The notes beneath the pieces are model-generated. The model worked only from the letters and a program-made list of their open reading frames with translations, was not told where the DNA came from and did no database searches. Of a stretch of 22,589 nt of DNA, positions 1,869 through 10,130 are shown one piece after another. This DNA is from a virus, in IMG/VR virus record IMGVR_UViG_3300026519_000067, positions 1 to 22,589 of that record. One strand, 5' to 3'. Both the position numbers and the translations under genes were made by a program. Within the stretch, counting starts at the first letter, position 1. Each line of letters opens with the position of its first letter.

Positions 1869-2525
1869 ATGGTCGTCAAGATCGAATACCTCATCCAGCC
1901 GAATGATCACGGGCTGATCGTCCTCGAAGGCAACAACGGCGGCATGCCGTATGACAACCTCATCCTCTACATCGAGGAAACCGGGAAGGTGAAGCTGGAT
2001 ACCCGCACCACCTACACCAGCAACGACGGCGAGCCGATAGACGAATGGCATGAACGCACGTTGACGGTCTGGATCACCAGCGCGGCAGGTGGACACCAGG
2101 TCTTGTGCTTCGAGGATATACGTTCTGTCCTCGAAGGGGAGCGCGTGCAGCCCTTGCTGAAACGTATCATCGACGGCCACGACGTGCGCTGGGACGGCTC
2201 CAACTACCGGGGCCGGGTGAGCGATGACGCCCGGGATGCCGCTGACGATCTCGACTGGATCCTGGCCGAGACGGACTGGGATTGCGGCTGGACGGCGTGG
2301 GATGCCGCGGAATGGCTGGTCGGACCGCAGTCCGACACCGCGGCCGCGCGCACGATCGGTCTGACGGTCGATTCCGGCCCGGAGGATATCAACCGGATGG
2401 TGGATAGGCTTTGGGGGACGGCGCTGTCTGAAAAGCAGTGGATCGTCGGGGGCAAGGAAGCGCTGGGAGACGCTATCCTGGCGCTCCAACAGCGCCTGCG
2501 CGAAGAAGCCGAAGAAGCCCGTTGA
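1869..2525 (+). CDS. Hypothetical early phage protein, 218 aa
   Basis: Function not recognised. The N-terminal half is beta-rich (VVKIEYLIQPNDHGLIVLEG and a following strand set to about residue 80). The C-terminal half is acidic and tryptophan-rich (DWDCGWTAWDAAEWL near residue 135) and ends in a charged helix, QQRLREEAEEAR. I see no metal-binding or nucleotide-binding motif. GAGGGAGA at 1855-1862 is 6 bases before ATG 1869, the same arrangement as the other genes of this block; ATG 1863 is the alternative start. It directly follows the 1453 gene without a palindrome, so these two form a pair, and palindrome copy 4 follows its stop. Confidence 0.78.
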   Translation: MVVKIEYLIQPNDHGLIVLEGNNGGMPYDNLILYIEETGKVKLDTRTTYTSNDGEPIDEWHERTLTVWITSAAGGHQVLCFEDIRSVLEGERVQPLLKRIIDGHDVRWDGSNYRGRVSDDARDAADDLDWILAETDWDCGWTAWDAAEWLVGPQSDTAAARTIGLTVDSGPEDINRMVDRLWGTALSEKQWIVGGKEALGDAILALQQRLREEAEEAR

Positions 2526-2539
2526 CGACAGGCCCGACT

Positions 2540-2563
2540 CCACCGTGACGGCCGTCACGGTGG
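2540..2563. promoter_or_regulatory. Recurring palindrome, copy 4
   Basis: A perfect 24-base inverted repeat centred between 2551 and 2552 with the GTGACGGCCGTCAC core. The right flank (GGGGCCCCAACCAACACAGG) is identical to that after copy 1, while the left flank has drifted, so the outer arm pairs only partly. It separates the stop at 2525 from the start at 2592. Confidence 0.76.
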
Positions 2564-2591
2564 GGCCCCAACCAACACAGGGAGAACGACA

Positions 2592-3440
2592 ATGCGCCTG
2601 ACAAAAGCCCTCAAGACGGAGTTCATCAAGACGGCCTCCCACCGGGAGGTCGCTCATCTGGTGCGCGAGTATTACATCGCACAGGAAAACCGCATTCGTG
2701 CAGCCGCACAGATGCGCTCGCTGGTCGAAGAAGCGCAGCCGACCTTCATGCTGGACTGGCTGCAGGAACACGGACGGGAACGCGAGGCCGTCATCAAGCG
2801 TATTCTCGACGCCTGGACAGAGGCTGACCCCGTGGCCTCCTGGGCCCGTCAATTCATCGGAGTCGGGCCGGTGATTGCCGCCGGTTTTCGAGCGCGCATC
2901 GACTTCACGGTGCTGTATCCGTCGCAGGTCCTGCAGTTCTGTGGCATAACCAAGGCGGCCGTGAAGAAACGCGGGCAGAAGCTCAACTACTGCACCGACA
3001 TGAAACGACTGGCCTATCTGCTGGCCAATTCGTTCGAGAAGTGCGGCGCGCGAGCAGCGGCGGACGATCCGCGCAATTTCTACTGGGTCCTGCTTCAGGA
3101 AGAGAAACGCAAGGGCCGGCAAGCCAACGAGGCCGGCAAGTTCGCTCGCCAGGCTGCGGAAAAACTGGCCAACGCCCGAGGCGCCAGCGCGGAGACCCGT
3201 GCGACGTGGGAACAGGGCAAACTGACGGACGGCCACCTGCGCATGCGGGCGCTGCGCAAGGTGGAACAGGTGTTCCTGACGCACCTGCATGAAGTCGGGC
3301 ACTACCACGAAACCGGCGAGCTGCCACCGTTGCCGTGGCAGTTCGAGCACACGCCGGAAGGCAGCGCTGGCCCGCACGACAAGCGCGAATACATCCCCGT
3401 TCCACTGCGGCCGGACTGGCTGCCGGAACGAGTGTTGTGA
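2592..3440 (+). CDS. Stand-alone IS110/IS116-type C-terminal (HhH) domain protein, no transposase catalytic half
   Basis: The 282-residue protein has a helical N-terminus (1-85), then a helix-hairpin-helix signature GVGPVIAAGF at about 90-99 and FCGIT at 116-120. These resemble the Transposase_20 domain at the C-terminus of IS110-family transposases (known from the family; recognised by eye here). A long charged helical region (165-205) and a conserved-looking tail (KLTDGHLRMRALRKVEQVFL, about 210-229) follow. The N-terminal DEDD domain is absent, and the serine expected downstream of the HhH in active IS110 enzymes is not visible, so transposition by this protein alone is unlikely. Related stand-alone proteins occur in other phages and are often annotated as transposases. 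GGGAGA lies 6 bases before the only nearby ATG, which calibrates the starts of its neighbours. It is immediately followed by the 34-bp repeat array. Nucleic-acid binding is the most I would infer. Confidence 0.75.
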   Translation: MRLTKALKTEFIKTASHREVAHLVREYYIAQENRIRAAAQMRSLVEEAQPTFMLDWLQEHGREREAVIKRILDAWTEADPVASWARQFIGVGPVIAAGFRARIDFTVLYPSQVLQFCGITKAAVKKRGQKLNYCTDMKRLAYLLANSFEKCGARAAADDPRNFYWVLLQEEKRKGRQANEAGKFARQAAEKLANARGASAETRATWEQGKLTDGHLRMRALRKVEQVFLTHLHEVGHYHETGELPPLPWQFEHTPEGSAGPHDKREYIPVPLRPDWLPERVL

Positions 3441-3756
3441 GCCGAACCGGAGAGCCATGTCGGATGTGAACGAGCCGCTTGAACATGAGCCATGTTCGTG
3501 AAGAACGAACCGCATGCAAAGAGACATGGCGCAATTGAATGAGCCGCTTGATATGAGCCATGTTTGAGAAGAACGAGCCAAACACCGGAAACCATGCAGA
3601 AGCGGAACGAACCGCAATGAGGAGAGCCGCGCAAGCAAAGCCATGCGCCATATGAACGACCCATCGGACACAAACCATGCAGTGCCAGAAGGAACCGTTG
3701 TGAAAGAACCATGTAGTGGCAGAATGTCTTGCAACCCATACCAGAGGAGCACGACC
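3441..3756. repeat. Imperfect 34-bp tandem repeat array between the IS110-like gene and the 3757 gene
   Basis: This 316-base gap holds eight units beginning at about 3455, 3490, 3524, 3558, 3592, 3641, 3675 and 3709. The consensus is CCATG, eight variable bases, G, AACGARCCG, then about 11 variable bases ending in a purine run. The distance from CCATG to GARCC is constant at 12 bases. The period is 34 (once 35), with one 49-base and one terminal 46-base unit. Unit 3 has ACATG, units 6 and 7 deviate in the second block, and unit 8 keeps only the first. Two units counted by eye are 47-50% GC, well below the neighbouring genes, and A-rich on the + strand. A partial unit overlaps the stop codon at 3438-3440. 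Iterons of a replication origin, a protein-binding array or a structured RNA are all possible. Confidence 0.7.
3481..3497. repeat. Short inverted repeat inside the 34-bp array
   Basis: GAACATG and CATGTTC form a perfect 7-bp stem with the loop AGC across the junction of units 1 and 2. The equivalent junction of units 3 and 4 keeps ATGAGCCATG but loses outer pairing. Because CATG is self-complementary, each unit carries a potential pairing nucleus. Confidence 0.4.
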
Positions 3757-4377
3757 ATGAAGACGACCGTGGTTACGACGACCGCCACATCCGATCCCGT
3801 GGCCTGGATAGAAGGGATCCCCTACTATCATCTCGCCGGAACACCGCTGGCCACACCGCTGGGCGTCCTGGTGAAACGCGGCCGGTCTCGATGGCCGGAC
3901 CGCCGGTTCATGGCCAGCGACGTGCGGTTGTATGTTCCGGGGCCGTGTATCGTCATGGCCGGCACGCCGGTGTTCGACGAATGGACGGACGAACCGGCCA
4001 TGTCCGGCTATCCGTTGTTCGACCTGCGCACCCCGCCGGTCATTTTCAACCGGGACACCGTCTCGGCAGATACCGGACTGTTCGGGTTCTGGCTGGCCCA
4101 CGACAGCATCCTGACCTACGGGACGTTCCCGGAGCCAGACCTGGTGATGCCGGGCCTCGTCGTGCCGCACCGGCAGGCCACGGCGGTGGATTTCGTTCGC
4201 TGGGAGGACACCCTGGCCCTGTGGGTGCGCAACATGCAGCGCGACGGCGAGAATGCCGTCCTGTTCGGGCATGCCTTCGGATGCGGGGACCCGAGACCCT
4301 TGCTGCACCAGACGGCGACCATCGAGGCCGGACGCATCGACGCCGGTCTGGTGGCTGCTGGCTCCGGGGAGGAGTGA
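3757..4377 (+). CDS. Hypothetical phage protein, 206 aa
   Basis: Function not recognised. After a threonine-rich start, the sequence contains an unusual series of beta-type stretches rich in proline and glycine (VAWIEGIPYYHLAGTP; VRLYVPGPCIVMAGTPVFDE; LVMPGLVVPHRQ). This suggests a compact all-beta or beta-sandwich protein. No membrane segment is seen, and two cysteines are not arranged as a metal site. Start 3757 has GAGGAG at about 3744-3749 with an 8-base spacer. An upstream in-frame ATG at 3643 would run through the repeat array and has no comparable ribosome-binding site. The start codon itself sits in a CCATG, continuing the array motif into the gene. The next gene starts 11 bases after the stop, so the two are probably cotranscribed. 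Confidence 0.72.
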   Translation: MKTTVVTTTATSDPVAWIEGIPYYHLAGTPLATPLGVLVKRGRSRWPDRRFMASDVRLYVPGPCIVMAGTPVFDEWTDEPAMSGYPLFDLRTPPVIFNRDTVSADTGLFGFWLAHDSILTYGTFPEPDLVMPGLVVPHRQATAVDFVRWEDTLALWVRNMQRDGENAVLFGHAFGCGDPRPLLHQTATIEAGRIDAGLVAAGSGEE

Positions 4378-5063: not shown

Positions 5064-5849
5064 ATGGCGCGACCCGGATACACGTCGTCGGCGGCAGTCA
5101 TGGCCCGCCGTCATGCTCCGCTGGACGACCTCGACTATTTTCCGACGCCGGCGTGGGCGACGCGGGCTCTGTTCGAATACGTCCTGAAGCCGCGGAACCT
5201 TTGCCCGCGCATGGCGTGGGAGCCGGCTGCGGGCGGGGGACACATGGTCAGGGCCCTTCGAGAATACGTCCCGTTCGTTCGGGCATCGGACATCGAGGAT
5301 TACGGGGCTGGCTTTGAACAACGCGATTTCCTGGCGGCGACCGGGCCCAGGAAGACACCCATCATCACCAATCCGCCTTTCTCGCGTGCGCTCGACTTCG
5401 CCTTGAAGGCGCATGCTCTTCAGGCCCCGCTCATCGCGTTGTTCGTGCGCACGGCTTTCCTGGAGGGCGCGGAGCGCTACAACAAGCTGTGGTCGAAACA
5501 CCCGGAGTTCATCCTGGCGCCGTTCTCCTGTCGGGTTGGGCTGACAAGGGACGTGGCCGTTCGCAAGGTGTCTTCGGCCACGTCATATGCGTGGGTCGTC
5601 TGGGGGCGGGGGGTGTCCGGCACGTCCATCGTGCACATCCCACCGGAGGCCAGACCGCGCCTCGAACGCACGCATGACTACGATGCGGATGATCCGGCGG
5701 CGGTTCTGACCTGCGGCGAGTGTGGCGAGATATTCGTGCCGGGCCCCGGCGTCGATCCTGACGAGGCCAGCGTCCTGGCCGCTCATGCCGGATGGGCGGT
5801 CGGGGATACTGTGTTATGCCAGCAATGCAAGGAGGACAGGACATGCTGA
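5064..5849 (+). CDS. DNA methyltransferase (N6-adenine/N4-cytosine type) with C-terminal zinc ribbon
   Basis: The 261-residue protein has an SAM-binding motif EPAAGGGHM at 53-61 and the catalytic NPPF motif at 103-106. These are the hallmarks of amino-methyltransferases acting on adenine N6 or cytosine N4 in DNA. The upstream FPTPAWATRALFEYVL (26-41) is typical of phage members of this class. A C-terminal extension carries CGEC at 217-220 and CQQC at 252-255, a likely structural zinc ribbon for DNA or protein contact. No separate target-recognition domain is obvious, so specificity cannot be read from the sequence. Start 5064 follows GGGACAGGACA. It overlaps the next gene by 7 bases. The probable role is masking phage DNA from host restriction or marking it for replication. 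There is no cognate nuclease nearby. Confidence 0.82.
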   Translation: MARPGYTSSAAVMARRHAPLDDLDYFPTPAWATRALFEYVLKPRNLCPRMAWEPAAGGGHMVRALREYVPFVRASDIEDYGAGFEQRDFLAATGPRKTPIITNPPFSRALDFALKAHALQAPLIALFVRTAFLEGAERYNKLWSKHPEFILAPFSCRVGLTRDVAVRKVSSATSYAWVVWGRGVSGTSIVHIPPEARPRLERTHDYDADDPAAVLTCGECGEIFVPGPGVDPDEASVLAAHAGWAVGDTVLCQQCKEDRTC

Positions 5850-6067
5850 AAACGCCCAAGGCCGGCGGTCTTGTGGGGAATGAATCCGGCGAATATCTGG
5901 TTCGGTGTGGTCGGTGTGGAACCATGATGCACTTGTCGTTTTGCGACGGGCCGGCACACGCCGGATCGCGTTTGCAGGTGCGAGGGTGGTTGGCGGTCAA
6001 AGACGAAGATGGCGTTCGGAAATGGATGTGCCGGCCGTGCGTCAACGAGACGTTGTGGGGAGACTGA
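5843..6067 (+). CDS. Small zinc-ribbon protein, 74 aa
   Basis: The protein carries CGRC at about residues 22-25 and CRPC near residue 64, spaced as in a zinc ribbon, with a cysteine and a histidine between them that might also contribute. Start 5843 is set by GGAGGACAGG at 5831-5840 and overlaps the stop of the methyltransferase by 7 bases, so translation is coupled. The layout, CG.CG near the start, then GW followed by a V.D-type stretch and a final CxxC, parallels the C-terminal domain of the methyltransferase just upstream. It could be a duplicated domain working with that enzyme, or a separate transcription or DNA-binding factor. Confidence 0.72.
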   Translation: MLKTPKAGGLVGNESGEYLVRCGRCGTMMHLSFCDGPAHAGSRLQVRGWLAVKDEDGVRKWMCRPCVNETLWGD

Positions 6068-6071
6068 AGAC

Positions 6072-6737
6072 ATGGCAGGGCTGTTCATCGCGATAGAAGG
6101 CCCGGACGGCGTCGGGAAATCCGATGTGTCCGTGCGGCTGGCCGACGCCATCAGACGGAGCGGCCGGGACATAATGCTGGTGCGCGACCCCGGCGGGTCG
6201 CCGACGGCGGAGCAGGTGCGCCACCTGCTGTCCCTGCTGCTGGCAGCGCGGGTCGGACCGGTTCCGGAAGTCCTGGCGTATTCCCTGTCGCGGGCTATTT
6301 CCACGAAAGAGGTCGTGGCGCCGGCACTGGCGCAGGGGAAAGTAGTCGTGTCGGACCGTTGGGGCATGTCCACGAGGGCGTATCAGTATGGCCGGGATGC
6401 CACCGCCGACTATCTCATTGGTGTGCTGGAAAACACCCTGTCGACGTTCTGCGTCGAACAGGCCGGCCGGGATGTCAGCCCCGACGTGTATGTCGTGCTG
6501 ACGGCTGATCCGGGGGTCCTGGTCCAGAGGCTGGCCTACAGGGCAGACCAACGTGGTGTGGACATGGAGGACCCTTCGCCGGCCGAGTTGGCGCGCATTC
6601 AGGATCGATACCTGGAGATCATGTCCGGCGGGTCGCCGATGGCCAGCCGGACAATCCATGTGGATACGACGGCAAAACAGCCTCAGGCCGTCTGCGATGA
6701 GATCATGGTCGCGTTGAAGAAGAGGGGGGTGCTATGA
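6072..6737 (+). CDS. tmk: dTMP (thymidylate) kinase
   Basis: The enzyme phosphorylates dTMP to dTDP with ATP in the cytoplasm. The 221-residue protein has the P-loop EGPDGVGKS at 9-17, the dTMP-kinase-type VRDPGG at 37-42 (RxPGG/REPGG in relatives) and DRWGMSTRAYQ at 95-105, corresponding to the DRY...S.AYQ substrate motif. The length is within the usual range for the family. ATG 6072 is chosen because it begins the conserved MAGLFIAIEG and has GGGGAGA upstream; a longer in-frame start at 6009 would overlap the preceding gene. With dCMP deaminase and thymidylate synthase downstream, it completes a route from dCMP to dTDP. Its stop overlaps the next start as ATGA. Confidence 0.9.
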   Translation: MAGLFIAIEGPDGVGKSDVSVRLADAIRRSGRDIMLVRDPGGSPTAEQVRHLLSLLLAARVGPVPEVLAYSLSRAISTKEVVAPALAQGKVVVSDRWGMSTRAYQYGRDATADYLIGVLENTLSTFCVEQAGRDVSPDVYVVLTADPGVLVQRLAYRADQRGVDMEDPSPAELARIQDRYLEIMSGGSPMASRTIHVDTTAKQPQAVCDEIMVALKKRGVL

Positions 6738-7159
6738 CGGAACTCATGTATCGCATCAACACGTCGCCGACACAACGGACGTTCCGCCTGAACGGCGCGT
6801 CTCATCCTTTCCGGCATGAGGAGCTCGTCGAGAAATCGCGCAACATGGCCTTTTCCGTGACGGCCGTCACGGAAAGCGGGCAGACCTGTTGCCATCAACC
6901 CGATGAACCGCGAGCGGAAGACGAACCAGCAACAGACACGAGTTTCGGTCTGACATTCTGCCCTCTGTGGGTATTCGTCGTCTTTGCGTTTGGCATTGCC
7001 TTTGGGGCGCTCGCAGCCACGTCGGCCATGCTGATGGCCACGTCGCCCGCTCCGGCCGTGGTGGAAGCGTCGGCTGCACGGACGGCGGAGGCGGTGGCGG
7101 CCATCAAGAAGAACAACGCCGGGTTCAAGATCGAGGACAGGATACAGGAGGAACAATGA
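6734..7159 (+). CDS. Single-pass membrane protein of unknown function, 141 aa
   Basis: The N-terminal 70 residues are soluble and polar. A hydrophobic segment at about 75-100 (LWVFVVFAFGIAFGALAATS) should span the membrane, and the remaining 40 residues end in a charged helix (AAIKKNNAGFKIEDRIQEEQ). There is no signal peptide before it, so a bitopic topology is likely. Palindrome copy 6 lies inside the coding sequence at 6852-6875 and is translated as part of SVTAVTE. The start overlaps the dTMP kinase stop (ATGA), and the stop overlaps the next start. The position among nucleotide genes gives no direct clue; superinfection exclusion is one guess for a small early membrane protein. Confidence 0.72.
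   Translation: MTELMYRINTSPTQRTFRLNGASHPFRHEELVEKSRNMAFSVTAVTESGQTCCHQPDEPRAEDEPATDTSFGLTFCPLWVFVVFAFGIAFGALAATSAMLMATSPAPAVVEASAARTAEAVAAIKKNNAGFKIEDRIQEEQ
6852..6875. promoter_or_regulatory. Recurring palindrome, copy 6 (inside a coding region)
   Basis: A perfect 24-base inverted repeat, TTTCCGTGACGG and its complement, centred between 6863 and 6864. It shares the 14-base core with the intergenic copies but has AT-containing arms instead of the GGGGCC arms. It lies in the early part of the 6734 membrane-protein gene and preserves its frame. Confidence 0.7.
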
Positions 7160-7440
7160 TGACAGGAGACAACGCGAAACCCATGCGCGCAGCCGTCATT
7201 CACCGATTCAACAAGATCAAGAACATGGAAGAAGAGGTGAAGGAGCTGCGCCGCGAAATCAATCTCCTCGTCGGCGAGATCGCCGCGCACATGGGTGTGG
7301 AGAAGAAGGAAGCCCGCATGGTGTATCGCGCCTGGAAGGACCGCATCATGTGGGAGGAGGAGACAGCTATCGTGCAGAATTGGCTGGACATCCTCTTCTC
7401 CGGGCTTCCCGGGGAAGACGAGAAACAGACGGATGGGTGA
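7159..7440 (+). CDS. Small helical protein of unknown function, 93 aa
   Basis: The protein is basic at its start. Residues about 14-45 (HRFNKIKNMEEEVKELRREINLLVGEI) form a likely coiled coil, followed by a charged helical region (MGVEKKEARMVYRAWKDRIM) and an acidic tail. AGGAGG at 7146-7151 is 7 bases before ATG 7159; ATG 7156 is possible but closer than ideal. The gene overlaps the preceding stop, and its TGA shares one base with the methyltransferase start (TGATG), so it is translationally coupled to the cytosine methyltransferase. It may act with that enzyme or simply share its transcript. No family recognised. Confidence 0.7.
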   Translation: MTGDNAKPMRAAVIHRFNKIKNMEEEVKELRREINLLVGEIAAHMGVEKKEARMVYRAWKDRIMWEEETAIVQNWLDILFSGLPGEDEKQTDG

Positions 7441-8543
7441 TGCGCTATCTGTCCCTGTTCAGCGGCATAGAAGCCGCCTCCGTGGCCTGGCGGCCGTTGG
7501 GATGGAAGCCCGTGGCGTTCGCCGAAATAGACAGATATGCCTGCTGCGTCTTGCGCAGACGGCACCCACTCGTGAGGAACCTCGGAGATGTCAACAAATA
7601 CAGGGAATGGCCAAATTTCGAGGTCGACCTCGTCGTTGGAGGGAGCCCCTGCCAGGCCTTCTCGGTTGCCGGACACCGTCTCGGCCTGGACGATCCGCGT
7701 GGCAACCTGGCCATCGCCTTCTGCCATGTGGTTGCTCGCTATCGCCCTCGATGGGTCGTGTGGGAAAACGTCCCGGGCGTCCTGTTCAGTAACCAAGGAC
7801 GGGATTTTGCCGCCATCATCGGGGCGCTGGGGAAGTGCGGGTATGGTCTCGCCTGGCGAGTGTTGGACGCTCAATATGTGCGAGTGGCCGGCTACTGCAC
7901 CGGGGTGCCACAACGACGCCGTCGTGTGTTCCTTGTCGGATATCTTGGAGACTGGCGACGTGCCGCCGCGGTATTATTTGACACCGCGGGCGGCCAGGGG
8001 CATTCTCCGCCGCGCCGAGAAAAGACGCGCGGCCGGCGGGGTGTCGATCCCGGAGAAACTGAGAGTGGCGCTGGAAGCTCTTTCGTCCCGGACGTAGCCA
8101 ACATTCTCACCGGTCGAATGCACAAGGGCATCAACACCACGATGGATGAGGGCCAGACGTTGTTGGCGTTCGACCATCAACGTAGTGGCGAAGGTCTGAC
8201 CGTCGATTGTTCCCCTCCGCTAATCACGACAGGCGCGGGAGCCGTATACGGGCCAACTGTCGTGTTGAACATCCGACAGAACCCAGTCCATTCGGAGGAA
8301 GTGGCCCTGCCGTTGTCCACCTACAACGACAACCACGCGGTGTTCACGGACGCATCCATCCGACGACTGACGCCGAGAGAAGCGGAACGGCTCCAGGGGT
8401 TCCCAGACGACTACACCCTCGTCAAGGGGCCGAACGGGCGGATGATGTCCGACACGCAGCGCTACAAGATGTTGGGTAACAGCATGCCGGTAAACGTCAT
8501 GCGATGGATAGGCATGAGAATCGAGATGGTGGAGGCGATATGA
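7440..8543 (+). CDS. DNA (cytosine-5)-methyltransferase
   Basis: This enzyme adds a methyl group to carbon 5 of cytosine in duplex DNA, using SAM. The 367-residue protein shows the family motifs in order: motif I LFSGIEAASVAW (6-17), motif IV GGSPCQAFSVAG with the catalytic Cys71, motif VI WENVPG (109-114), motif VIII QRRRRVFLVG (158-167), motif IX RRLTPREAERLQGFP (308-322) and motif X KMLGNSMPVNVM (343-354). The region between VIII and IX (about 170-305) is the variable target-recognition segment, and I cannot tell which sequence it reads. The start at 7440 gives MRYLSLFSG directly and overlaps the previous stop. It appears intact and has no restriction partner nearby, so it is probably an orphan methylase protecting phage DNA. 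Its stop overlaps the next start (ATGA). Confidence 0.92.
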   Translation: MRYLSLFSGIEAASVAWRPLGWKPVAFAEIDRYACCVLRRRHPLVRNLGDVNKYREWPNFEVDLVVGGSPCQAFSVAGHRLGLDDPRGNLAIAFCHVVARYRPRWVVWENVPGVLFSNQGRDFAAIIGALGKCGYGLAWRVLDAQYVRVAGYCTGVPQRRRRVFLVGYLGDWRRAAAVLFDTAGGQGHSPPRREKTRGRRGVDPGETESGAGSSFVPDVANILTGRMHKGINTTMDEGQTLLAFDHQRSGEGLTVDCSPPLITTGAGAVYGPTVVLNIRQNPVHSEEVALPLSTYNDNHAVFTDASIRRLTPREAERLQGFPDDYTLVKGPNGRMMSDTQRYKMLGNSMPVNVMRWIGMRIEMVEAI

Positions 8544-8851
8544 ACAAGAGGCTTCGATTAGTTCCAGTCCGCCCAGAAAGAAAAATCCTGACGATAGAGG
8601 GGGCCCTGGAATACGGGTTTCAGCACATGCCGTTGCCGGCGGCCACGTATGACGTGCTGCGCCGGTTCATGCGCGAATGCGAGACAGACCACGTCGAGAT
8701 ACGCCGAAGGACCAGCGATACTGTTGACGTGGAGCACATACAGGCCCTGCTGGAGAACGCGCTCGACGAACTTCGATACGGAGAAGACCCGGAGGTTGTC
8801 GAAGCGCACATCCTGGACGCCCTCACCGCCTTGAAAGGGGATGACGCATGA
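8540..8851 (+). CDS. Hypothetical protein, 103 aa
   Basis: Function not recognised. The product starts with a basic segment (MNKRLRLVPVRPERK), followed by a mostly helical, acidic body with DVEHIQALLENALDELRYGE at about 64-83. There are no cysteine pairs and no membrane segment. ATG 8540 is set by GGAGG at 8531-8535 and overlaps the methyltransferase stop as ATGA. The stop overlaps the dCMP deaminase start in the same way, so it is embedded in a coupled chain of nucleotide and modification genes. It may be an accessory or inhibitor of one of those enzymes, but nothing in the sequence proves it. Confidence 0.72.
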   Translation: MNKRLRLVPVRPERKILTIEGALEYGFQHMPLPAATYDVLRRFMRECETDHVEIRRRTSDTVDVEHIQALLENALDELRYGEDPEVVEAHILDALTALKGDDA

Positions 8852-9303
8852 CGAAGGTCCTCGAAACCCGTTGGGCCTTGCGCGCGCTTGGGCTCGCCCG
8901 AGAAATCGCCGGTTGGTCGAAGGACCCAAGCTCGCAGGTGGGCGCGATCATTTTTCGGCCTGACAAGACCATCGCCGCGCTCGGCTACAACGGGTTCGCC
9001 AGGGGCGTGGCCGACACACCGGGGCGGCTGTCTGACAGGGACGTGAAACTCGCGCTCATGATTCACGCCGAGCAAAACGCCATCTTGAACTGTAGAGACA
9101 ACAACCTGATGGGCTACGCCTTGGCGGTCTGGCCATTGCCGCCGTGTGCGCATTGCGCGTCCCTAATTATTCAGGCCGGCATCCGGCAGGTCATCGCGCC
9201 AAACGACATCCCACCTGCGCGTTGGCTAGACAACATGCACCTGGCTGAAACGATCCTGACCGAAGCCGGCGTTACCATCACCAAACTACCGACCGGAGGA
9301 TGA
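8848..9303 (+). CDS. Deoxycytidylate (dCMP) deaminase
   Basis: The enzyme converts dCMP to dUMP, the substrate of thymidylate synthase. The 151-residue protein contains the zinc-dependent deaminase signature: HAE at 73-75 (zinc-binding His and proton-shuttling Glu) and PPCAHC at 98-103 with the two zinc-binding cysteines. The upstream [13 protein letters not shown] (24-36) and GYNGFARGV (46-54) are typical of the dCMP deaminase family rather than of cytidine or tRNA deaminases. The second zinc site seen in some phage enzymes is not evident. It overlaps the previous stop (ATGA) and lies directly before thymidylate synthase, a very common phage pairing for raising the dTMP supply. Confidence 0.9.
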
Positions 9304-9305
9304 AC

Positions 9306-10130
9306 ATGTCGACCGAAACATGGCGGTGGGGGGAAACCGGCTATCTGGCGCTCCTGCAGCGCGTCCTGGAGGAAGGGCAGGAGCGGCCGGATCGCACTGG
9401 CGTCGGGACGTTAGGGTTGTTCGGAGAATCCCTGCGGTTTGATCTGAAGGACCGGCACCTCCCCGTCCTGACGACGAAGAAGGTGCACCTCAAGTCCGTC
9501 ATCGGAGAGCTGTTGTGGTTCATTCGCGGTGATACCAACATCCGCTGGCTGCACGAGCATGGAATCACCATCTGGGATGAATGGGCAGATGAAAACGGCG
9601 ATCTTGGCCCCATCTATGGGGCGCAATGGCGCTCATGGCCCGCGCCGGATGGACGGCACATAGACCAGCTGGCGGTGGTTCTGGACAACCTGCGGAGGGA
9701 CCCGTATTCGAGACGGCATGTCGTGTCGGCCTGGAACGTGGCTCAACTGGACGAAATGGCCTTGCCGCCATGCCATCTGCTGTTTCAGTTCCATGTGCAG
9801 GGAAAGACCTTGTCGTGTCAGGTCTATCAGCGCAGCGCCGACATCTTTCTAGGCGTGCCGTTCAACATAGCGTCCTATGCGCTGCTGACGCACATGGTGG
9901 CCAGTGTTACCGGCCTCGAAGCCGGCGCGCTGGTCATGGTATTCGGAGACGTGCACCTGTATCGCAACCACATGTATCAGGCGCACACGCAATTGAGCCG
10001 CACCCAGAGAACACCGCCGACGGTCCGATTTGCGCGCGCACACGAGCGCCTCGAGGATTTCACGTTCGACGACATCGTCGTTGAGGGCTACGACCCACAC
10101 CCGGCCATCCCGGCGCCCGTGGCCGTGTGA
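9306..10130 (+). CDS. thyA: Thymidylate synthase (ThyA type)
   Basis: The enzyme methylates dUMP to dTMP using methylenetetrahydrofolate. The 274-residue protein closely follows bacterial ThyA along its length: RPDRTGVGT (27-35), [13 protein letters not shown] (67-79), [16 protein letters not shown] (90-105), [17 protein letters not shown] with nucleophile Cys156, [20 protein letters not shown] (175-194) and the terminal [13 protein letters not shown]. The Asn in [10 protein letters not shown] marks dUMP rather than dCMP specificity, so it is not a dCMP hydroxymethylase. I use ATG 9306 because GGAGGA at 9295-9300 has a 5-base spacer; ATG 9300 overlaps that site. This is the last gene of the + block, and its stop directly abuts the stop of the convergent lysis block. 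Confidence 0.95.

What the first reader, a model, noticed from the sequence alone, without database searches (positions are those of the whole stretch)
3441..3756. Array of ~eight 34-bp repeats with constant and variable blocks
Seen directly: CCATG, then 8 variable bases, a G (8 of 8 units), then AACGARCCG, then about 11 variable bases ending in a purine run. The CCATG-to-GARCC distance is the same in all units and the period is 34 in most. The stretch is visibly more A-rich than its neighbours (two units counted at 47-50% GC). Fixed blocks around same-length variable segments are not typical of simple iterons. Candidates are a replication-origin iteron array, a binding array for a phage protein, or a structured RNA. 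No standard feature type explains the variable segments.
Basis: partly seen in the sequence, partly recalled or inferred. Interest (0 to 1): 0.78.

Follow-up and report, generated by a model that had tools for sequence, protein, structure and literature searches.

The report
Phage TIGR guide-RNA array beside TasA
The repeats are an array of short guide-RNA units lying right behind the gene for their partner protein, a phage-borne TIGR-Tas system (an RNA-guided DNA-binding family first described in 2025), here in a slightly shortened 34-base form.

Summary
In detail: eight units of mostly 34 nt, two fixed blocks around same-length variable segments, far beyond chance. It is a dual-repeat TIGR array (Tandem Interspaced Guide RNA). 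The gene that ends at its first base, 2592-3440, encodes a Tas protein. It passes the curated NCBIfam model for TIGR-Tas (E 7.5e-35, above cut-off). Its predicted fold (pLDDT 93) matches solved TasR and TasH best. A DNA-only search for TIGR arrays in viral contigs returned 80 loci, 61 of which carry a protein of this family, the best 36-37% identical to it. The protein has no RuvC or HNH domain, so it is TasA-like. [quoted passage not shown] Per unit: edge GAACGARCCR (10), spacer A (8), loop RARCCATG (8), spacer B (8). The 34-nt unit and the short loop ending in TG differ from the 36-nt units of every other dual-repeat array I looked at. Most likely it makes ~34-nt guide RNAs that lead a nuclease-less Tas dimer to bind and bend other mobile DNA. 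Expression, processing and targets are not shown. No self-target was found.

The parts
2592..3440 (+). tasA-like gene: 282-aa Tas protein (coiled coil plus Nop/IS110-type RNA-binding domain), no nuclease domain
   Evidence: NCBIfam NF052498 TIGR_Tas_endo E 7.5e-35, 120.9 bits, cut-off 100; Foldseek top 11 hits all TasR/TasH; no RuvC/HNH Pfam match at E<=10
3438..3731 (+). dual-repeat TIGR array, eight guide units, 34-nt period
3438..3444 (+). 5'-truncated first edge repeat TGAGCCG; its TGA is the tas stop codon
   Evidence: L088 also begins with a truncated edge overlapping the tas stop
3445..3467 (+). unit 1: spacer A AACCGGA, loop GAGCCATG (3452-3459), spacer B TCGGATGT
3468..3502 (+). edge GAACGAGCCG, spacer A CTTGAACAT, loop GAGCCATG (3487-3494), spacer B TTCGTGAA
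3503..3536 (+). edge GAACGAACCG, spacer A CATGCAAA, loop GAGACATG (3521-3528), spacer B GCGCAATT
3537..3570 (+). edge GAATGAGCCG, spacer A CTTGATAT, loop GAGCCATG (3555-3562), spacer B TTTGAGAA
3571..3604 (+). edge GAACGAGCCA, spacer A AACACCGG, loop AAACCATG (3589-3596), spacer B CAGAAGCG
3605..3653 (+). irregular 49-nt unit: edge GAACGAACCG, CAATGAG, extra edge-like GAGAGCCG (3622-3629), spacer A CGCAAGCA, loop AAGCCATG (3638-3645), spacer B CGCCATAT; looks like the relic of a partly deleted unit
   Evidence: relic status is inference
3654..3687 (+). edge GAACGACCCA, spacer A TCGGACAC, loop AAACCATG (3672-3679), spacer B CAGTGCCA
3688..3721 (+). edge GAAGGAACCG, spacer A TTGTGAAA, loop GAACCATG (3706-3713), spacer B TAGTGGCA
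3722..3731 (+). last, 3'-truncated/degenerate edge GAATG(TCTTG)
3757..4377 (+). downstream gene of unknown function (206 aa), start codon behind AGAGGAG; not shown to belong to the system
   Evidence: no family match, no relative found

Best explanation
This is a phage-borne TIGR-TasA system. The array is transcribed on the + strand together with or behind tasA and cut within the edge repeats into guide RNAs of about 34 nt (half edge, 8-nt spacer A, loop, 8-nt spacer B, half edge). A Tas dimer holds edge and loop repeats through their shared RCCR (box C) and RA (box D) elements. The two spacers pair with opposite strands of adjacent 8-bp target stretches, and the complex opens and bends the DNA. 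Since the protein has no nuclease domain, it most likely blocks replication or transcription of competing mobile DNA, or acts as an RNA-guided DNA-architecture factor, rather than cutting. Shown here: array anatomy, Tas identity, adjacency, absence of a recognisable nuclease domain. Inferred from the published system: transcription, processing, dimer binding, two-strand targeting. Speculative: the biological role.
For: P0001 passes NCBIfam NF052498 TIGR_Tas_endo (120.9 bits, cut-off 100) while the IS110 transposase model is far below its cut-off, 18.4 against 140. Among all solved structures phmmer finds only TasR 9mty (1.5e-5) and TasH (0.17). AF2 model pLDDT 92.8: Foldseek top 11 are TasR/TasH, E from 1.7e-6, then IS621/ISCro4. 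An HMM built from published TasH, Mvi-JY20 and L089 proteins only hits P0001 at 2.8e-18. A DNA-only array pattern gave 80 viral loci, of which 61 carry a Tas ORF, 36-37% identical to P0001 at best, E down to 1e-41. L088, the first relative found (36%), has a 36-nt TIGR array starting at its tas stop codon. The published array of Salicola phage CGphi29, recovered as a positive control by the same scan, has the same layout. The edge here, GAACGARCCR, agrees with the clade edge GAGCGAGCCA at 9 of 10 positions counting R as compatible. Published anatomy: alternating 8-12-nt repeats, truncated edges at both ends (PMC12045711).
Against: The unit is 34 nt, not the 36 nt of all other dual-repeat arrays inspected; the loop is 8 nt and ends in an invariant TG that the edge lacks, so box C is not matched exactly between edge and loop. 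No terminator follows the array although published arrays typically have one. No target was found in the window or in 2.5 Mb of held loci. No relative with this exact array was found. No transcription data exist.
Confidence: 0.95

Rival explanations
1. A decayed or non-functional TIGR array: the tas gene is intact but the repeats have drifted and no longer give proper guides.
For: One 49-nt irregular unit, degenerate last edge, substitutions in several repeats, long branch of the protein, no terminator.
Against: All regular units share one and the same altered geometry and 13 columns are held in 7-8 of 8 units; random decay would not change every unit alike. The tas ORF is full length and conserved.
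Confidence: 0.12
2. An iteron array or protein-binding array (origin, operator or partition site) next to a DNA-binding gene.
For: Tandem spacing, A-rich stretch, phage DNA-metabolism region.
Against: The neighbour is a Tas protein; the layout with 8-nt variable blocks matches TIGR arrays found independently; the sign change of GC skew lies near 10 kb, not here.
Confidence: 0.02
3. A row of very short genes: most units read ATG-xxx-xxx-xxG-AAY-GAR-CCN (M-x-x-x-N-E-P), with changes mostly at third codon positions.
For: ORFs MSDVNEP.., MFVKNEP.., MAQLNEP.., MFEKNEP.., MQKRNEPQ.
Against: The period is not a multiple of 3, so the frame shifts each unit; peptides end at unrelated places and the last unit is ATG-TAG. 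The 36-nt arrays of relatives lack a conserved CCATG.
Confidence: 0.01

Closest known systems
SpTIGR-TasH of Salicola phage CGphi29 (Faure et al. 2025, PMC12045711)
   Same: Tas gene followed at once by a dual-repeat array with 8-nt spacers, same strand; repeats end in CCA and the edge contains CGAG.
   Different: 36-nt unit, 10-nt loop, HNH nuclease domain; the window protein has none and its unit is 34 nt.
L088 (IMG/VR 3300028840_004707) TIGR-Tas locus
   Same: Tas 36-38% identical over nearly full length, array begins at the tas stop codon, edge GAGCGAGCCA resembles GAACGARCCR.
   Different: 36-nt unit, loop GAGGGAACCA (10 nt), box C spacing 18/18 instead of 14/20.
TIGR-TasA (Flavonifractor plautii FpTIGR, published)
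   Same: Tas protein without a nuclease domain next to a dual-repeat array.
   Different: 9-nt spacers and 36-nt guides in the published case; its sequence was not compared here.
IS110 transposases (IS621, ISCro4) with bridge RNA
   Same: Related RNA-binding fold, two-guide logic.
   Different: The window protein lacks the RuvC (DEDD) domain and misses the IS110 model cut-off; array instead of one bridge RNA.

Membership tests
TIGR-Tas | Tas protein with Nop/IS110-type RNA-binding domain | tested here: met
   NF052498 above cut-off; Foldseek TasR/TasH; HMM built without it hits at 2.8e-18
TIGR-Tas | Adjacent array of two different alternating repeats of 8-12 nt with two short spacers of about equal length per unit | tested here: met
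   10-nt edge, 8-nt loop, 8-nt spacers, directly after tas. The sum is 34 nt; published guides are 36 nt, but the paper says repeat sequences and spacer sizes vary among loci
[quoted passage not shown]
   TGAGCCG at 3438-3444 and GAATG at 3722-3726
TIGR-Tas | Rho-independent terminator behind the array (described as typical, not defining) | tested here: not met
   none on the + strand in 2400-4200; the next gene starts at 3757
TIGR-Tas | Box C/D elements shared between edge and loop | tested here: inconclusive
   RCCR and a preceding RA are in both, but the loop carries an extra TG after CCA and only 1 nt between the elements
TIGR-Tas | Array processed into guides bound by Tas; two-strand DNA targeting | not testable with these tools
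   needs RNA-seq and binding assays; no target found in silico
TasA subtype | No RuvC or HNH domain at the N terminus | tested here: met
   TIGR_Tas model covers residues 21-235, only 20 residues before it; all-helical N terminus; no nuclease Pfam at E<=10
TIGR stem-loop array subtype | Palindromic hairpins in place of edge repeats | tested here: not met
   no inverted repeats in 3300-3900; RNA folding z -1.14
IS110 transposon | RuvC-like DEDD domain and IS110 transposase profile above cut-off | tested here: not met
   18.4 bits against cut-off 140; no PF01548/PF02371 hit
CRISPR array | One repeat of 25-36 nt with spacers of similar size, cas genes | tested here: not met
   two different short repeats, 8-nt spacers; no cas or defence family among the genes scanned

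The most novel reading that the evidence does not exclude
A TIGR-TasA lineage with a changed guide geometry: 34-nt guides with an 8-nt loop repeat RARCCATG, box C spacing 14/20 instead of 18/18, and either an invariant TG closing the loop or a fixed first dinucleotide in spacer B, matched by a fast-evolving Tas protein (longest branch of its clade). It would show that Tas tolerates asymmetric repeats, contrary to the symmetric edge/loop recognition seen in TasR.
Probability: 0.5. Interest if true: 0.55.

Novelty: new member of a known kind. Interest (0 to 1): 0.45.

Why it matters
TIGR-Tas was described only in 2025 and its natural role and targets are unknown, above all for nuclease-less TasA. 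An intact example in a siphophage with compact, odd guides adds a natural variant to test the limits of guide length and repeat symmetry. The simple array search used here also shows that such arrays are common in public viral contigs, where Tas genes are still labelled 'transposase'.

Tried and rejected
Close relatives of P0001 and of the downstream protein: none in phages or viral contigs by single-protein queries, none in genome contigs, and for the L088 relative none in plasmids. Two-unit pattern of this exact array in viral contigs: none. Thymidylate-synthase neighbours were too general to use. Folding P0001 without an alignment failed (pLDDT 38). Rfam: two chance-level matches below gathering score. 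Self-targets of tandem spacers in the window: best 3 mismatches of 16, same as random queries; exact targets in 2.5 Mb of held loci: none. Coding reading (M-x-x-x-N-E-P) considered and rejected.

Full report
Setting. The window is a 22.6-kb IMG/VR virus record. Genes of the left half lie on the + strand (thymidylate kinase-like, cytosine methyltransferase, dCMP deaminase, thymidylate synthase), and on the - strand of the right half an endolysin and siphovirus tail genes. Tail relatives are distant, at most about 33% identity, so this is an unfamiliar siphophage.

Eight CCATG-type blocks lie at 34-nt steps, with one 35 and one 49, and GAACGARCC sits at a fixed distance behind each. Thirteen columns are conserved in 7-8 of 8 units; the best elsewhere in the window is 2 and in 2000 shuffles 3. 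The variable blocks show little column conservation. GC drops to 53% from 63.5%.

The neighbour explains it. The gene that ends at the first base of the array, 2592-3440, matches PHROG 4285 'transposase'. Its only sequence relatives among solved structures are TasR (9mty, named in the TIGR-Tas paper) and TasH. It passes the NCBIfam model TIGR_Tas_endo above the curated cut-off and is far below that of IS110 transposase. With an alignment of 60 relatives its predicted structure has pLDDT 92.8, and Foldseek ranks TasR and TasH in the first eleven places, IS621/ISCro4 after them.

Independent support from arrays. The published array of Salicola phage CGphi29 was recovered as a control, directly behind tasH: edge AAGCGAGCCA, 8 nt, loop AAGACAACCA, 8 nt. 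A relative in viral contigs, L088, 36% identical to the window protein, has a 13-unit 36-nt array that starts at its tas stop codon. In 61 of these an HMM built without the window protein finds a Tas ORF, and the same HMM finds the window protein at 2.8e-18. BLASTP of the window protein against them gives 36.9% identity, E 1e-41 at best. In the tree it sits within a 24-row dual-repeat clade (support 99), on a long branch.

Parsing the array by homology. The clade edge is GAGCGAGCCA and the loop GAGAGAACCA. GAACGARCCR corresponds to the edge and RARCCATG to the loop. So the array begins with a truncated edge TGAGCCG whose TGA is the tas stop, runs through eight guides and ends in a truncated edge GAATG, as published arrays do. 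One unit is 15 nt longer and holds an extra edge-like GAGAGCCG, perhaps the relic of a deleted unit. Edge 10, spacer A 8, loop 8, spacer B 8 make 34 nt. In the other arrays successive box C elements are 18 and 18 nt apart; here 14 and 20. Whether the invariant TG after CCA closes the loop or opens spacer B cannot be settled from sequence. The array pattern used for the survey demanded 36-nt units, so the survey does not measure how rare 34 is; the arrays found through proteins (L084, L087, L088, L089) are all 36 nt.

Mechanism. By the published scheme (PMC12045711) the transcript is cut in the edges, a Tas dimer binds edge and loop, and the two spacers pair with opposite strands of adjacent target DNA. 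There is no nuclease domain, so binding and bending without cutting is expected; NCBIfam's name 'endonuclease' should not be taken over. No self-target was found, no terminator, and the RNA alone is not more structured than shuffles, as expected for guides shaped by the protein. The role (inter-element competition, regulation, help to a recombinase) is open.

Verdict. A real TIGR-TasA locus: known kind, new member, with a modest but consistent change in guide geometry.

Noticed in passing
L083:2200-3241 (Mycobacterium phage Kanely; about 76 mycobacteriophage records): Mycobacteriophages (Kanely is a Fromanvirus) encode a Tas-like protein annotated 'transposase' or 'DNA binding'; the stretch upstream holds long hairpins that look like a stem-loop TIGR array.
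   Followed up: partly
L085:1830-3190 and L086:1770-2270: Rhodococcus phage Peregrin and Arthrobacter phage Talia1610: Tas-like gene flanked by hairpins whose loops carry repeated GCTAATACCCA / CATACCC motifs, apparently stem-loop TIGR arrays.
   Followed up: partly
L087:3021-3330: Microcystis phage Mvi-JY20: unannotated dual-repeat TIGR array (ATGCGAGCC / ACGAAACCC, 9-nt spacers) right behind a Tas gene of 241 aa.
   Followed up: partly
L096-L175: One array pattern returned at least 120 TIGR-like stretches in viral contigs; in some loci (L101, L111, L114, L120, L127, L135, L150) the start of edge and loop changes together from AG to TG, fitting the reported covariation of box D.
   Followed up: partly
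L089:610-1464: A gene that reads like a ParB N-terminal domain (DGQHR motif, judged by eye only) directly before a Tas gene with a 36-nt array further downstream, as in the published tasParB-tasA operons.
   Followed up: no
L088:4735-5259: A 36-nt TIGR array reads through as a spurious 174-aa repetitive ORF; such arrays may be annotated as proteins elsewhere.
   Followed up: no
window 5064-10130: Gene cluster with cytosine-5 methyltransferase, thymidylate kinase-like protein, dCMP deaminase and thymidylate synthase, suggesting phage nucleotide metabolism or DNA modification.
   Followed up: no
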